This document shows positions 10,468 to 31,356 of a stretch of DNA of 32,585 nt, piece after piece. Location of the stretch: assembly GCF_010672455.1 (NCBI RefSeq), contig NZ_JAAHGO010000007.1, positions 255,805 to 288,389 of the forward strand. Reading direction: 5' to 3'. A model generated the notes under the pieces. That model made no database searches, was not told the DNA's origin, and saw nothing but the letters and a program-made list of their open reading frames with translations. Every line of letters starts with the position of its first letter. Within the stretch, counting starts at the first letter, position 1. The position numbers and the translations under genes were made by a program. This DNA comes from Okeania sp. SIO2C9 (GTDB taxonomy: Bacteria > Cyanobacteriota > Cyanobacteriia > Cyanobacteriales > Microcoleaceae).

Positions 10468-11386
10468 ATAAAAGCTAGATTTAAGTATCCTATTTATCCA
10501 ACACCGGGACAAAAATACCGATTAGCCAAAGTATTTGGTTGTGTCCGTGTTGTTTGGAATGATAGTCTAGCTTGCTGCCAAGAAAAGTACAAATCAGGAG
10601 AAAAAAAAACCATTAATCCTGAGCTACAAAAGCTTTTTATTACTCAAGCTAAAAAGACTGAAAATAGAGAGTGGTTATCAGAAGTTTCTGCTATACCATT
10701 ACAGCAATCTTTGAATGACTTAAACCGTAGAGGCGAAGGACTGTTTGCCCCTAAAAAACTTTTTTAAATCAACTAAAGGTCAGAAAAAAGGTAAACTTGT
10801 TAAACCTCCTAAATTCAAAAAACGTAGAAAGTCAAAACAAACTGCAAGATTTACACTCATGAGGGTTTAAAGTTGGTGAACATAAAGTTTATTTAGCCAA
10901 GATTGGGAAGTTAAAAATAGTTTGGTCTAGAGAGTTAACTAGTCAACCTTCTTCAGTAACTGTTATCAAGGACTCACTTCATAGATATTTCTTAAGTTTT
11001 GTAGTAGAAACTTTACCAAAAATTTTGCCTAAAACTGATAATTCAGTAAGTATAGATTTAGGCATCAAAACTTTTGCTACTTTGAGTAATGGTGAAAAGG
11101 TTGATGCTCCTAAGTCACTGAAAAAACGAATTAAGAAGTAGCCTCTTTCAGAGAAGCTTTCCTATCGGAATGCTACGCAAAGACTAAGGAAAATTAAGTC
11201 AGTCATTATCTCAGAAAACTAGAGGGTCTAAATCATATGAAAAAGCGAGGCTAAGAGTTGCTAAATTTTCCTAGGTCATGCTGCGCAAACATGCCACACT
11301 GAAAGATACCCTTGACAGATTTTCTGCATAAATTATCTACTGAAATTATGGACGAAAACCAAGTAATAGTTTTAGCGGATTTACAA
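10468..11386 (+). pseudogene. Decayed tnpB of an IS200/IS605-type element
   Basis: The reading begins at ATA in place of ATG (KARFKYPIYPTPGQKYRLAKVFG), the typical TnpB N-terminus, then VVWNDSLACC. It breaks at about 10740 where foreign bases replace part of the helical region, shifts frame, breaks again near 10860, and continues through SVSIDLGIKTFATL, the RuvC-I block with its Asp. At about 11140-11190 and 11267-11291 short repeats interrupt the arginine/lysine-rich stretch. The last recognisable part is FLHKLSTEIMDENQ then IVLADL, where the RuvC-II Glu is Ala. It then joins a group II intron RT fragment, so the catalytic C-terminus and right end are missing. TnpB is an RNA-guided nuclease; this copy cannot be active. 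Confidence 0.8.
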
Positions 11387-11668
11387 AGCGTCACGTCCTG
11401 GAGATGTCAGAACAGTTCGCAGACTCCAAAAATGACTAACAAAGTCTTGGGTTGCAAAAGTTATCGCGGTGCGTCGAGTAACCCAAGACAATCAAGGCCG
11501 AAAGACGGCAGGTGTGGATAGCGTTAAATCGCTGACCCCAAAGCAAGGTCTGGCCTTGGCAAATAAATTAAAGCTGGGTACAAAGGTCAGACCAACTCGG
11601 AGAGTATGGATTCCCAAACCAGGGATGGATGAAAAGCGACCTTTAGGAATACCGATTATTAATTATAT
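11387..11668 (+). pseudogene. Group II intron reverse transcriptase N-terminal fragment
   Basis: One frame reads YKASRPGDVRTVRRLQK, a stop, then LTKSWVAKVIAVRRVTQD and TAGVDSVKSL, ending ...RRVWIPKPGMDEKRPLGIPII. This is the RT-0/RT-1 part of a group II intron-encoded protein. It stops where RT-2 (the 'LEPEWEA' block) should begin. It has one in-frame TGA and no start. The sequence differs from the complete intron protein at 28046-29509, so it comes from another intron lineage. It directly abuts the tnpB remnant. Confidence 0.8.
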
Positions 11669-11748
11669 GAGTTATGAAGCTATACTATTTCTAAATATAA
11701 AATATAAATTATATAGGAACTACTGAATAATTTAGGAGCAAACTTAAA

Positions 11749-27098: not shown

Positions 27099-30000
27099 GT
27101 GAACAAAAATCCAGTAGCTAAACCTTTCTTAAAATGGGCAGGAGGTAGTGCGATTCGTTAGGTCGAAACTGCTTCTAGGAGCAGGGGATGACTTGGGTTG
27201 ATTTTTTTAGATCAACTACAACTGTAGAGAGTTTCTAGGTTTAAGTCCTAGCATCGAGATGTTCGATTGAATCCATTATCCCCATTAAGGAGAGTGGCGC
27301 TCGAATTAGTGAAGCGGGATAAAAAGCAGGTAATAACCAACCTATCTAGGTTAAATCCCTGCGAGGGAGGTCGAAAGGGTTAACATTCGTGAACTGATGA
27401 TTGGAAGCGTCGTTAGTCCAAGATGGAGATACGATAGGTCAAGTCTCTATCCAAATATAGCAATGTGCGCTGGCATATTTACAAATTACAGGAACTGTCC
27501 AATAGCAAAAAGTCTTACAGAGATGCTTCCCTACGGGATGCTACGCAAACGCAAACAGCAATTTATTCTCCCTATTGCCTCTGTTGGTCAGCATTCCGCA
27601 AGCGAGCTGGCGTCGTCGCGGGGTCTGACCGCTGTTGCCTGTTGCCAGATGAGCTGCGCACAGCGCTATAGGAATGAGAATCAGAGATTTTCCTCTTTCT
27701 GATTAACATCCTTCTCTTACCGATAAGAGCATTCCTCGGCGTATAGTCAGAACCCGACCCGACCAGACAAAACCTCTACGGAACGAAGTAACCCGAATAA
27801 AGTTCTCATTGAGTAGGCAGCCAAGCTATAAATTTTATTGGGGAAGGATGATGTCAAAAGCTAATGTCTGGAGTAATTTCCAGGATATGCAGACGGACAT
27901 CCCTAAGTCTAGAGATGTAGAAACTAATCACGGAAGCCAAAATTCAAAATTCAAAAGTCATAAAGTCAGATTTTATCAGCTCAAAACAAGGAGCGAAACT
28001 ATTTGTGACATTTTTGAAGTGAATTGGTATTAAGTAAGAGGCAAAATGACCAATACGAGTGAAACAACTACGGTGGAAATGAAATGGAGTGATGTTAACT
28101 GGAAATCGGTTAATAGAGCAGTATTTCGCCTTCAGAAAAGAATCTACAAAGCGTCGCTAAATGGTGATACCAAAACTGTCAGGAAATTACAGAAATTACT
28201 GGTAAAGTCTAAATCAGCTAAACTACTCGCAGTCAGGAAAGTAACACAGGACAATAGGGGTAAAAATACTCCAGGAATAGACGGGATAGCTAAAATAGCC
28301 CAAAAAATTCAACTGGATGGCAAAGCTAAACCTATCCGCAGGATTGAAATTCCTCAGCTAAATAAACAGGAGAAAAGACCATTAGGAATACCTGCAATGG
28401 AAGACCAGGCTAAACAGGCATTAGCTAAAATAGCTCTAGAACCAGAATGGGAAGCAAGGTTTGAGGCGAATTCTTATGGTTTTAGACCGGGAAGAAGTGC
28501 CAAAGATGCGATCGCAGCTATCTATAGTGACATTAAAAGAACGAGTTATTACGTTCTAGATGCTGAGATAGAAAAGTGCTTCGACCAAATAAACTATAGA
28601 AGATTATTGGATAAACTCAATACTTATCCAGCTATGCACCGTCAAATTAAGGTATGGCTCAAAGCAGGGGTTATTGAGAAGGATGTCTTCTACAAAACCG
28701 AAAATGGTACTGCAAAAGGTGGTGTAATTTCTCCGTTATTAGCCAATATAGCTTTACATGGAATGCGGGAGGTATTACAAGAGGTATTTTCCCAGAAATA
28801 TACTACCTATGAGATACAACCCGATGTCAATTTCAATCTACCTCTATTCCATAGATATGCGGATAATTTTGTCATCTTACACAAAAGCAAAAAGGTGATA
28901 GAGGAATGCCAAGAAATTATCAATGACTGGTTGGAAAATATGGGTCTAAAACTAAAAGACTCAATAACAAGAATTGCTCACACTCTAGGAGATGGAAAAG
29001 TTCAGACAGGATTTGACTATCTAGGGTTTAATGTCAGGCAATATTCAGTCAAAGATATAAATAGTGCAACGGATGGAAATGGTAAAAAATTAGGGTTTAA
29101 AACTCTGATAAAACCTGCAAAGGAAGCTATCAAACGCCATACCAGAGTCCTAAAACATACAATTCGACTGTATCGCAATGCACCGCAAGAGAAATTAATA
29201 GAAGTCCTAACACCTAAAATTAGGGAGTGGAGCAATTATTATGACTCTGTGATAAGTTCAAGAGTCTTCGCAAAGATGGATAATATCTTATTTCATCAAC
29301 TTCTCAGATGGGGATACTATCGTGGGCCCACACAGGGTAAAAAGCATATAGTAAACAAATATTGGGGAGTTGATAAAGGAAAAGGATGGAAATTCATTAC
29401 ACCAGACGGGAAAGTATTGCGAAACCATAAAGACACTCCCATCAAAAGAGCGATCGGACTCCAAGAGAAGAAATCGTTATTTGATGAAGACTTGGTGTAC
29501 TGGAGATGATGACTTTCTTATGATTAGGATTTACGCAGATAAACTATATATAGCGCTTGTAACTATTGTCCAATAGTAGTTAAACTCTATACATAGTGCC
29601 TTTGCGTAAGTCCTGATTATATCAAATCCGGATAATTACTATATTCAAGTCCGCAGCGACTGTAACGGAGTGGAAGGAAGCAATCTCAGAGGTGCGCGGA
29701 AATTGCTTCATATAGTCGCAATGACGACTATTCAACCGGATTCTATATTAGACAATAGTAATAGGACTTACGCACGAGGCACGAAAAAGTAACGTTTGAG
29801 ATTGCTTTCCTCTCGGTCGCAATGACCGAAATACGAGTAGTGCTGCATTGTAATGGCACAGTGGGAGCATCTTGCTCCCGTTCTAAGTGTTCTACCAAAT
29901 TGATAAATGTTTGCTACAAATAGTTAGGGTATTTCTGAGGAGTCAGGAGTCAGGAGTCAGGAGTCAGAATTAATAGCTTTAATAACAGTTTTTAGGTCTG

Positions 30001-31356
30001 AATTTATCTTTTTCGTCGAAGATACATCTCCTACAAAGTATTTTAATTGCCCTGATTATTCGTAACATTCTTTTTTTTAATTGGTATTCCTTGTCTCCAC
30101 CTACCATTATGCGAGCAGGGTTACTGAAACAGAACTTACGCAGAGACACTAAATCAAGTGAGGGCAAATACCATTTGCCCCTACAGATGGTGGTTTTAAA
30201 GTCAATTTGCGTAAGTCCTGTGAAATAAGTTCTACTGCATAAGTTCTAAGTCAGAACTTACGCAAAGACACTGTTTATAGAGTCCAGTAACTATTGGACA
30301 ATAGTTATGAGTACTATATATAGCGTATCTGCGTAAGTCCTATAAGTAATAAAGAGAAGTCACAATACTGATGAAAAGACAGAAAGGTGAATGTGCCTTA
30401 TCTGGAGGATATTTTACCAGTGAAGACAGGTTGCGATCGCAAGTCAAACTAGCTAGGAGGAGCTGAATGAAGGGGAACTTTCATGTTCGGTTCTGAAGGA
30501 GAGTTTGGGATAGTGATATTCCATTCGACTCTAACAAAGACAATTATTACCTGAGTTAATCAAATATATTGATGAAAAATCCCTAAAAAAGCATACCTAT
30601 TATGAACCTTTCATTGGAGGTGGAGCGCTTTTATTTGAGTTACAACTAACTAGGGCAGTTATTAATGATAAAAATCCGGAATTAATTAACTGTTACGAGG
30701 TAGTTAGAGATTCATTGGATGATTTAATTGTGGAGTTAAAAAAACATCAAGAAAAAAATAGTTCGGATTATTATTATGAAGTAAGAAATTTAGACCGTAT
30801 TTCTAAATATAGAAGTCTGTCAGCAGTAGAAAGAGCAGCTAGAATTATCTACTTGAATAAAACCTGCTATAACGGTCTATTTAGGGTTAATTCTCAAGGG
30901 CAATTCAATGTTCCTTTTGGCAGATACAAAAAACCTAATATTTTGGATGAAGATGTTTTAAAAGCTGTGAGTAAATATTTAAACAAACCTCAAGTAAAAC
31001 TCTTAAATACGGATTTTGCAGAGGCTGTTAAGAAGGCAAAAGAAGGTGATTTTATCTATTTCGATCCACCTTACGACCCGGTTTCTGATACAGCATCTTT
31101 TACTGGATATGATGCTAATGGTTTTAACCGGAATGAACAGGAAAGATTGAAGGAAGTTGTTGATGATTTAACAGCGAGAGGTTGCCGAGTTATGTTGAGT
31201 AATTCTCAGACTGATTTTATTATGGATTTATATCAAGATTATCAGGATAAAATTCACATAGTTAAGGCAGCACGAAATATCAATTCTAAAAGTTTTAAAA
31301 GAGGTAAAATCAATGAAATTATAGTTTTAAATTTTTCAGTGTCGGGTTTATCATAA
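27099..31356 (+). CDS. dam: DNA adenine methylase, split by a group II intron
   Basis: Exon 1 is 27099-27147 (GTG start, GGAGGT eight bases upstream) and exon 2 is 30536-31356. Removing 27148-30535 gives one frame of 290 codons (289 residues plus stop), the normal length for Dam-type N6-adenine methyltransferases. The protein begins with PFLKWAGGKRQLLPELI (SAM-binding motif I, FxxWxGGK), followed by YYEPFIGGGALLFEL. DPPYDP (residues 193-198) is the catalytic motif IV. The intron enters codon 17 (Lys of GGK) after its first base, so no active methylase can be made without splicing. The D12 class usually methylates adenine in GATC. No matching restriction gene is in the window, so it may be solitary. 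Exon 2 alone has an open frame from 30715 (TTG) that would lack motif I. Confidence 0.9.
27458..27668. mobile_element. MITE family 2, copy 2, inside the intron
   Basis: A 211-bp element with ends TAGCAATGTGCGC and GCGCACAGCGCTA flanked by TA (27456-27457 and 27669-27670). The left 50 bp is the inverse of 4460-4509. It has an extra internal segment with 'gatgctacgcaaac' and 'gcattccgcaagc' short repeats. It lies in the 5' part of the group II intron RNA, about 310 bases from the 5' splice site. Open frames across it are not genes. Confidence 0.82.
28046..29509 (+). CDS. Group II intron maturase with altered RT motifs
   Basis: A 487-residue intron-encoded protein. RT-0/RT-1 is KWSDVNWKSVNRAVFRLQKR through VTQDNRGKNTPGIDG (residues 12-82). 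Then LEPEWEARFEANSYGFRPGR and the first catalytic block VLDAEIEKCFDQI. RT-4 reads GTAKGGVISPLLANIAL (residue 221 on) where GTPQGG is expected. RT-5 reads YADN (residues 271-274) where YADD is expected. The maturase/X domain is well kept (AIKRHTRVLKHTIRLYRN, IREWSNYYDSV, LLRWGYYRG). The protein ends at FDEDLVYWR, so it has a DNA-binding stub and no HNH endonuclease. With a changed metal-ligand Asp and PQG motif, reverse transcription is probably weak or lost, while splicing help may persist. ATG 28046 lies inside domain IV. Confidence 0.92.
   Translation: MTNTSETTTVEMKWSDVNWKSVNRAVFRLQKRIYKASLNGDTKTVRKLQKLLVKSKSAKLLAVRKVTQDNRGKNTPGIDGIAKIAQKIQLDGKAKPIRRIEIPQLNKQEKRPLGIPAMEDQAKQALAKIALEPEWEARFEANSYGFRPGRSAKDAIAAIYSDIKRTSYYVLDAEIEKCFDQINYRRLLDKLNTYPAMHRQIKVWLKAGVIEKDVFYKTENGTAKGGVISPLLANIALHGMREVLQEVFSQKYTTYEIQPDVNFNLPLFHRYADNFVILHKSKKVIEECQEIINDWLENMGLKLKDSITRIAHTLGDGKVQTGFDYLGFNVRQYSVKDINSATDGNGKKLGFKTLIKPAKEAIKRHTRVLKHTIRLYRNAPQEKLIEVLTPKIREWSNYYDSVISSRVFAKMDNILFHQLLRWGYYRGPTQGKKHIVNKYWGVDKGKGWKFITPDGKVLRNHKDTPIKRAIGLQEKKSLFDEDLVYWR
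29526..29614. mobile_element. MITE family 5, intron copy a
   Basis: An 89-bp element, AGGATTTACGCA ... TTTGCGTAAGTCCT, with a central 'aactattgtccaatagt' palindrome. It is the inverse-orientation homologue of 30253-30341. It lies just after the maturase stop in intron domain IV. Confidence 0.7.
30132..30219. mobile_element. MITE family 5, intron copy b
   Basis: Ends GAACTTACGCAGAGACACT and TTTGCGTAAGTCCT. The centre is a different palindrome (gggcaaataccatttgccc). It shares ends but not core with copies a and c, like the element at 24917. Confidence 0.6.
30253..30341. mobile_element. MITE family 5, intron copy c
   Basis: Ends GAACTTACGCAAAGACACTG and CTGCGTAAGTCCT, with the core 'taactattggacaatagtta'. 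It aligns end to end with copy a in the opposite orientation. Confidence 0.7.
30460..30535 (+). ncRNA. Group II intron domains V and VI
   Basis: The ribozyme catalytic core. Domain V (30460-30493) and domain VI (30501-30531) are intact by base pairing, with only short linkers (7 nt between them), and the 3' splice site follows at 30535/30536. Intactness here argues that the intron still splices. Confidence 0.9.

What the first reader, a model, noticed from the sequence alone, without database searches (positions are those of the whole stretch)
27099..31356. Group II intron splits a DNA adenine methylase exactly inside its SAM-binding GGK motif
Joining 27147 to 30536 restores PFLKWAGGKRQLLPEL and a 289-residue Dam protein. 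The intron ends, domain V and domain VI all fit, so the boundaries are defined to the base. Methylation of the genome, including GATC inside HIP1 sites, would then depend on self-splicing and on the encoded maturase. Group II introns usually avoid host genes; dependence of an epigenetic enzyme on splicing is unusual and could act as a regulatory switch (inference).
Basis: partly seen in the sequence, partly recalled or inferred. Interest (0 to 1): 0.85.

Follow-up and report, generated by a model that had tools for sequence, protein, structure and literature searches.

The report
Homing intron splits cyanobacterial dam gene
A self-splicing mobile intron sits at one exact base of a DNA-methylation gene in many distantly related cyanobacteria, and in this genome it seems to have lost the power to move while keeping the parts needed to splice itself out.

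Summary
It is the only Dam-family gene found in this 10.9-Mb Okeania-like genome.

Near relatives have empty sites, and intron and dam histories conflict, so the intron has moved between hosts at this site (homing). Of 13 close maturase relatives found in 388 genomes, 12 adjoin dam.

The lineage shows a decay series. Some copies keep reverse-transcriptase and endonuclease motifs; Okeania (this window included) and two Trichodesmium copies have lost both, while the maturase frame and dam stay under purifying selection. The likely state here is an immobile, splicing-only intron.

Print already notes that T. erythraeum dmtA is 'interrupted at the 17th codon by an apparent retroelement' and counts it as an exception; that reading is probably wrong. 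Nothing supports a regulatory switch. No RNA or methylation data were available.

The parts
27099..27147 (+). dam exon 1: GTG start, 16 codons and the first base of the lysine codon of GGK
27142..27147 (+). IBS1 candidate (GAGGTA), exon bases -6 to -1
   Evidence: pairs with the loop at 27690-27695 at 5 of 6 positions, mismatch at -2
27148..30535 (+). group II intron, 3388 nt, GTGCG...AAC
   Evidence: same-base copies in other genomes
27690..27695 (+). EBS1 candidate (TTCCTC) in a hairpin loop
   Evidence: column ranks 1 of 480 in a scan for pairing with the own exon, by a small margin; loop table
28046..29509 (+). intron-encoded protein, 487 aa: RVT_N, RVT_1, GIIM (maturase domain); no HNH
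28565..28567 (+). RT motif A position: Glu where YADD-bearing relatives have Asp
   Evidence: that this Asp is catalytic is recalled
28856..28867 (+). RT motif C: YADN in place of YADD
30458..30535 (+). domains V and VI
   Evidence: RF00029, 55 bits; 11 of 30 pairs with two-sided changes in 12 sequences
30528..30528 (+). presumed branch-point A, 7 bases before the 3' end
   Evidence: invariant in 12 of 12 aligned; role recalled from group II introns; the consensus fold pairs it rather than bulging it
30536..31356 (+). dam exon 2, codons 17 (last two bases) to 289 and stop
27451..27670 (.). dispersed repeat inserted in the intron
29516..30342 (.). several dispersed repeats between the maturase gene and domain V

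Best explanation
This is a group II intron of a lineage that homes into cyanobacterial dam (dmtA-type) genes at the codons of the near-invariant KWAGGK stretch (motif X). Its exon-binding loop appears to pair with the fixed codon positions and to tolerate mismatch at the two glycine wobble positions, which would let one intron recognise dam genes of diverged species. In this genome and its Okeania relatives it is a trapped, probably immobile descendant: the reverse transcriptase has lost its catalytic residues and the endonuclease is gone, while ribozyme and maturase remain because losing them would cost the cell the only Dam found. Splicing is expected to be constitutive and to yield full-length Dam, which methylates GATC. 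Shown by computation: boundaries, frame, same-base occupancy, empty sites, tree conflict, motif losses, selection. Inferred: splicing in vivo, need for this maturase, GATC methylation, immobility, codon reading.
For: Frame and boundaries. Same base in 11 loci of three families. Empty sites in G430-G432 of the same family. 13 maturase matches at E<=1e-160 in 388 genomes, 12 beside dam. Distance conflict: Trichodesmium MAG_R03/T. erythraeum Dam 89.5%, maturase 76.6%; MAG_R03/SU3 Dam 63.1%, maturase 87.1%; fourfold sites MAG_R03/T. erythraeum Dam 66/76, maturase 89/146; MAG_R03/MO207 Dam 33/56, maturase 137/171; G535/G554 Dam 100/114, maturase 219/220. AU tests: Okeania+Trichodesmium maturase clade rejected, p 4.9e-5; SU3+MO207+MAG_R03 Dam clade rejected, p 6e-46. 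Motif losses. Dam dN/dS median 0.196 over 10 Okeania pairs. EBS1 loop: in 11 of 11 loci mismatches fall only at -2 or -5.
Against: No RNA or methylation data. Selection does not single out the maturase domain: in Okeania dN/dS is 0.221 for domain X against 0.278 for RT. Some tree tests are weak: the three Trichodesmium maturases as one clade, p 0.037 (protein) and 0.20 (DNA); SU3 outside the Microcoleaceae copies, p 0.039. For SU3/MO207 the share of identical synonymous codons is 0.60 for Dam (96/160) and 0.60 for the maturase (252/421), so that transfer is old or blurred. EBS1 position -2 is mismatched in 9 of 11, the loop was located by eye for that table, and its lead in the scan is small, 4.45 against 4.36. 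EBS2 was not settled.
Confidence: 0.8

Rival explanations
1. Dam is simply disrupted: the retroelement has knocked the gene out, as print implies for T. erythraeum, and the cell lives without this enzyme.
For: PMC4390886 reads the T. erythraeum gene as interrupted with Motif X deleted (passages). No RNA data here.
Against: Both exons are intact in 11 loci and join in frame; Dam dN/dS is 0.16-0.27 over all 28 Okeania and Trichodesmium pairs; domains V/VI show compensatory changes; no second Dam-family gene was found in this genome.
Confidence: 0.08
2. Ancient vertical inheritance: one old insertion kept by descent in Okeania, Trichodesmium and relatives, with later losses; no homing.
For: Within Okeania, Dam and maturase distances agree (window/G420: 93.0% and 90.6%). 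The maturase tree is poorly resolved inside.
Against: Fourfold-site conflict in both directions for MAG_R03; near-identical maturases in G535/G554 beside clearly diverged dam; the intron in a Dam 44.5-45.2% identical to the window's; AU rejection of Okeania+Trichodesmium; at least 4 changes of state forced on the dam tree, though that count cannot tell gain from loss.
Confidence: 0.07
3. Regulatory switch: splicing is controlled and sets the level of Dam and so of genome methylation.
For: Full Dam can only be made after splicing and no other Dam-family gene was found.
Against: No regulatory element, condition or splice variant was found or looked for beyond the sequence; retention is explained by trapping; many relatives do without the intron.
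Confidence: 0.05

Closest known systems
dmtA of Trichodesmium erythraeum IMS101 as described in PMC4390886 (passages read)
   Same: Same gene and same codon (17); the T. erythraeum strain read here (L008) has the intron there
   Different: Described there as a disrupting retroelement that removes Motif X; not recognised in those passages as an intron that can be spliced out
O.i.I2 of Oceanobacillus iheyensis in radC (PMC4424553, passages)
   Same: Bacterial group II intron with a degenerate, YADD-less protein in a DNA-maintenance gene
   Different: ML class by that review; named there as the only bacterial example; here motif-intact relatives at the same site are known
Tery_4732 twintron of T. 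erythraeum (PMC4649490, passages)
   Same: Group II introns in a conserved cyanobacterial protein gene, 5' GUGCGAUUC, nested arrangement (compare G420, G421); splicing shown there in vivo
   Different: Other gene; that paper reports it as conserved within Trichodesmium and not found outside, whereas the dam intron spans families
MatK of plant chloroplasts (PMC4424553, passages)
   Same: RT motifs lost, domain X kept, intron in a needed gene
   Different: Organellar; serves several introns
DpnM, PDB 2dpm
   Same: Closest solved relative of the spliced Dam, E 2.4e-84, aligned over residues 6-283 including the GGK motif
   Different: Intronless partner of a restriction system (recalled)

Membership tests
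Group II intron | Domain V/VI | tested here: met
   RF00029 55 bits at 30458-30535; same in each of the 11 other complete copies; 11 of 30 pairs with two-sided changes
Group II intron | 5' GUGYG and 3' AY ends | tested here: met
   GTGCG and AAC; AAC or AAT in relatives
Group II intron | EBS1-IBS1 pairing | tested here: inconclusive
   5 of 6 pairs in the window; first of 480 columns by a small margin
Group II intron | Splices from RNA | not testable with these tools
   No RNA data
Mobile (retrohoming) group II intron | Active-site YADD in the intron protein | tested here: not met
   YADN, and Glu at the motif A position; met in MO207, G535, G554, MAG_R03, SU3
Mobile (retrohoming) group II intron | HNH endonuclease domain (of the En-bearing kind) | tested here: not met
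   None in the window protein; present in G535 and MO207 by Pfam and in G554 by motif
Site-specific homing lineage | Same base occupied in separate hosts, with empty sites known | tested here: met
Site-specific homing lineage | Element and host-gene histories disagree | tested here: met
   weaker tests told in the Against line
Dam (TIGR00571) adenine methylase | Full-length family match after splicing, with DPPY | tested here: met
   302 bits; DPPY at residue 193
Dam (TIGR00571) adenine methylase | Methylates GATC | not testable with these tools
   Inferred from kinship with DpnM/Dam and DmtA in print
IIB / CL class assignment | Subclass-specific structure and protein phylogeny | not tested
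   Not assigned here

The most novel reading that the evidence does not exclude
A bacterial counterpart of the path by which organelle introns became splicing-only: one homing intron lineage specialised on the motif-X codons of a near-universal cyanobacterial methylase, reading fixed codon positions and ignoring wobble bases, repeatedly invading dam, and, separately in Okeania and in Trichodesmium, losing reverse transcriptase and endonuclease while its host gene stays under selection. One allele (G420) has become a stack of three group II introns, two of them separated by a single exon base.
Probability: 0.55. Interest if true: 0.74.

Novelty: new variant of a known kind. Interest (0 to 1): 0.62.

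Why it matters
It would correct a published exception, T. erythraeum counted as lacking an intact dmtA. It would also make a rarely seen process testable in bacteria: a mobile intron enters a needed gene, loses mobility and lives on as a splicing-only element, with the stages present in living relatives. Recognising a target through fixed codon positions would explain how a group II intron can jump between diverged genes. If DmtA is needed here as print reports for Anabaena (PMC4390886, passages), GATC methylation in Okeania and Trichodesmium rests on a ribozyme.

Tried and rejected
Viral carriage: the dam-junction pattern hit 4 viral contigs, all in-frame coincidences in non-dam genes. Plasmid and phage records: no maturase at 60% identity or more among 1490 and 5 matching records, E limits 1e-60 and 1e-40, so no vector was found. 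High-copy intron: one full-length match in the own genome; the other 73 matches are partial and fall mostly on dispersed repeats nested in the intron (40 of 1734 candidates scored). A second dam in the genome: none (all first-look candidates scored). EBS1 at intron position 196 was dropped because the stretch looks like part of a conserved internal stem; another hairpin (TTACCGATAA) fits Okeania and Trichodesmium but not SU3, G535 or G554. A lineage homing one base upstream: the pattern matched 12 of 388 genomes; I read four contexts, one of them standing for nine identical matches, and only G420 is dam. Trans-spliced dam in MO207, whose 5' exon is missing: a wider motif search found none in that 83%-complete genome; unresolved, may be assembly.

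Left out of counts: G388 (429 bases with the 5' junction only); MO207 from pairing and both-junction counts; G429 and G386 (no dam match). Exact junction patterns miss variants: G420 and G389 were missed by them and found by protein. In some searches a row labelled G420_inner or G420_tandem_out is the protein of the nested third intron, not of the tandem one.

Papers: eight searches. None of the listings or passages I saw reports an intron in dam, but most listed papers were seen as listings only; the five papers were not opened. PMC12702839, a 2025 review of splicing in cyanobacteria, has no 'methylase' or 'methyltransferase' in its main text (passages). The T. erythraeum primary transcriptome paper is not held and supplements could not be read, so earlier recognition there cannot be excluded.
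Full report
Observation. The finding is exact. Exon 1, 27099-27147 (GTG start, 16 codons and one base), joined to 30536-31356 yields a 289-aa protein that is a full-length Dam: TIGR00571 302 bits, PF02086 237.7 bits, best solved relative DpnM 2dpm, E 2.4e-84. The 3388-nt insert begins GTGCG, ends AAC and has domain V/VI at 30458-30535. It encodes a 487-aa protein with RT and maturase domains. Unspliced, translation stops at the fifth codon after the glycines, and exon 2 has no usual start codon before residue 77 while motif I begins at residue 40, so a complete Dam needs splicing. The genome (10.88 Mb, 317 contigs, 99.98% complete) has one Dam-family match by profile and one by protein. Nearest named relatives by Dam are Okeania.

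Same base elsewhere. Among the 80 named loci kept, three Okeania, two Trichodesmium and the unicellular cyanobacterium SU3 match only from residue 17 or 18; two more interrupted loci (Trichodesmium MAG_R03, Microcoleaceae MO_207.B10) appeared on reading. An exact junction pattern hit 2 of 386 genomes of the phylum, 8 of 61 of the family and 11 of 388 of the order, the last including two further families (G535 and G554; G633). With the Dam protein, 9 of 61 family genomes match from residue 17 only, while G430, G431 and G432 match from residue 1; of the other 49, 46 match with starts between residues 1 and 8 and three have no match. Ten loci have a direct 5' junction and a 3' junction, and all ten restore the lysine codon at the same base; the eleventh, G420, does so once its tandem intron is allowed for. 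In G535 and G554 the host Dam is 44.5% and 45.2% identical to the window's, yet the maturase is 61% identical.

Homing. Of 388 genomes of the order searched with the maturase at E<=1e-160, 12 had a match, 13 matches in all (at most four candidates per genome were scored). Twelve adjoin dam (MO207 at the 3' side only); one, in G554, is an ectopic copy in a stretch with no long open frame around it, at a site resembling the dam target. Dam and maturase distances conflict: MAG_R03/SU3 Dam 63.1%, maturase 87.1%; MAG_R03/T. erythraeum Dam 89.5%, maturase 76.6%. Since decayed copies may evolve faster, I looked at fourfold sites: MAG_R03/T. erythraeum Dam 66/76, maturase 89/146; MAG_R03/MO207 Dam 33/56, maturase 137/171; G535/G554 Dam 100/114, maturase 219/220. 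Against this, SU3/MO207 shows equal shares of identical synonymous codons (96/160 and 252/421, both 0.60), so that transfer is old or blurred. The data reject an Okeania+Trichodesmium maturase clade (p 4.9e-5) and an SU3+MO207+MAG_R03 Dam clade (p 6e-46). The three Trichodesmium maturases as one clade are only weakly rejected (p 0.037 on protein; 0.20 on DNA); holding SU3 outside the Microcoleaceae copies gives p 0.039. On the dam tree the intron's presence needs five changes, at least four forced by well-supported branches; such counts do not tell gain from loss.

Target reading. A hairpin in all 12 introns examined carries a loop that can pair with exon bases -6 to -1. In the 11 loci with a known 5' exon, pairing at -1, -3, -4 and -6 never fails; mismatches occur only at -2 (9 of 11) and -5 (2 of 11), the third bases of the two glycine codons. 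I had placed the loops by eye. In a scan of every conserved column the same loop ranked first of 480 for the hexamer, 4.45 against 4.36 for the next, with G535 and G554 misaligned there. It is a candidate, not a proof; EBS2 was not settled.

Decay. MO207, G535 and G554 keep YADD, the motif A aspartate and HNH (HNH by Pfam in MO207 and G535). MAG_R03 and SU3 keep YADD, but their frame stops at the same codon before the endonuclease part, with a single TAG after which the frame stays open. All five Okeania-genus copies have Glu at the motif A position, YADN or YAGN, and no HNH. T. erythraeum and MAG_R02 have His, YAFD or YRFN, and no HNH. Which residues are catalytic is recalled. The frames stay open and under purifying selection: Okeania maturase dN/dS median 0.274 and Dam 0.196 over 10 pairs. 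The RT domain is less constrained than in the YADD group (0.278 against 0.055), but in Okeania domain X (0.221) is little tighter than RT, so selection alone does not prove maturase use. Domains V/VI show 11 of 30 predicted pairs with two-sided changes in 12 sequences, some of them near-copies.

Stacking. In G420 dam carries a second group II intron of 2543 nt, with a 623-residue stop-to-stop frame holding YADD and an HNH-like end (by eye), one base before the first intron, leaving a one-base exon, A. A third intron is nested inside the first; G421 has the same nested site with a 460-nt intron. The tandem intron would have to leave before the first can see its full target (inference).

Print. 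[quoted passage not shown] Codon 17 is this site. It also reports DmtA as essential in Anabaena under standard conditions. PMC4424553 (passages) calls degenerate intron proteins rare in bacteria, O.i.I2 in radC being the only known example, and says housekeeping-gene introns occur particularly in cyanobacteria. PMC4649490 (passages) shows a spliced twintron in another Trichodesmium gene. PMC8919778, PMC9950141 and PMC12702839 (passages) have no hit for methylase. I found no report of an intron in dam in the searches, within the limits told under Tried and rejected.

Verdict. A real, precisely placed group II intron in dam; a site-specific homing lineage across cyanobacterial families; in this genome most likely an immobile, splicing-only form. 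The regulatory switch has no support. The interruption itself was already in print for one species, the splicing, homing and decay reading was not found in print.

Noticed in passing
L192 (G420:C55:103400-123000): Three group II introns in one dam gene: a tandem one (2543 nt) one base before the conserved one, and one nested inside it; a one-base exon lies between the first two.
   Followed up: partly
L009 / G389:C307: MO_207.B10 has the intron and dam exon 2, but the sequence upstream of the intron is not dam and no exon 1 motif was found in that incomplete genome: rearrangement, trans-splicing or assembly fault.
   Followed up: partly
L006 and L043: In Trichodesmium MAG_R03 and SU3 the maturase frame is cut by a single TAG at the same codon before the endonuclease part, and the frame stays open beyond it.
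   Followed up: no
L207 (G554:C102): Ectopic copy of the dam intron at a dam-like site in a stretch with no long open frame.
   Followed up: partly
window 11376-11726: Remnant of another group II intron protein (RVT_N match; 47.6% identical to the dam-intron protein over 103 aa).
   Followed up: no
window 1-32585: HIP1 (GCGATCGC) occurs 10 times against 0.04 expected, while GATC as a whole is depleted, 39 against about 90 expected, so 10 of 39 GATC lie in HIP1.
   Followed up: no
window 27451-27670 and 29516-30342: The intron has collected dispersed repeats that recur across the genome; two of them match each other in inverted orientation.
   Followed up: no
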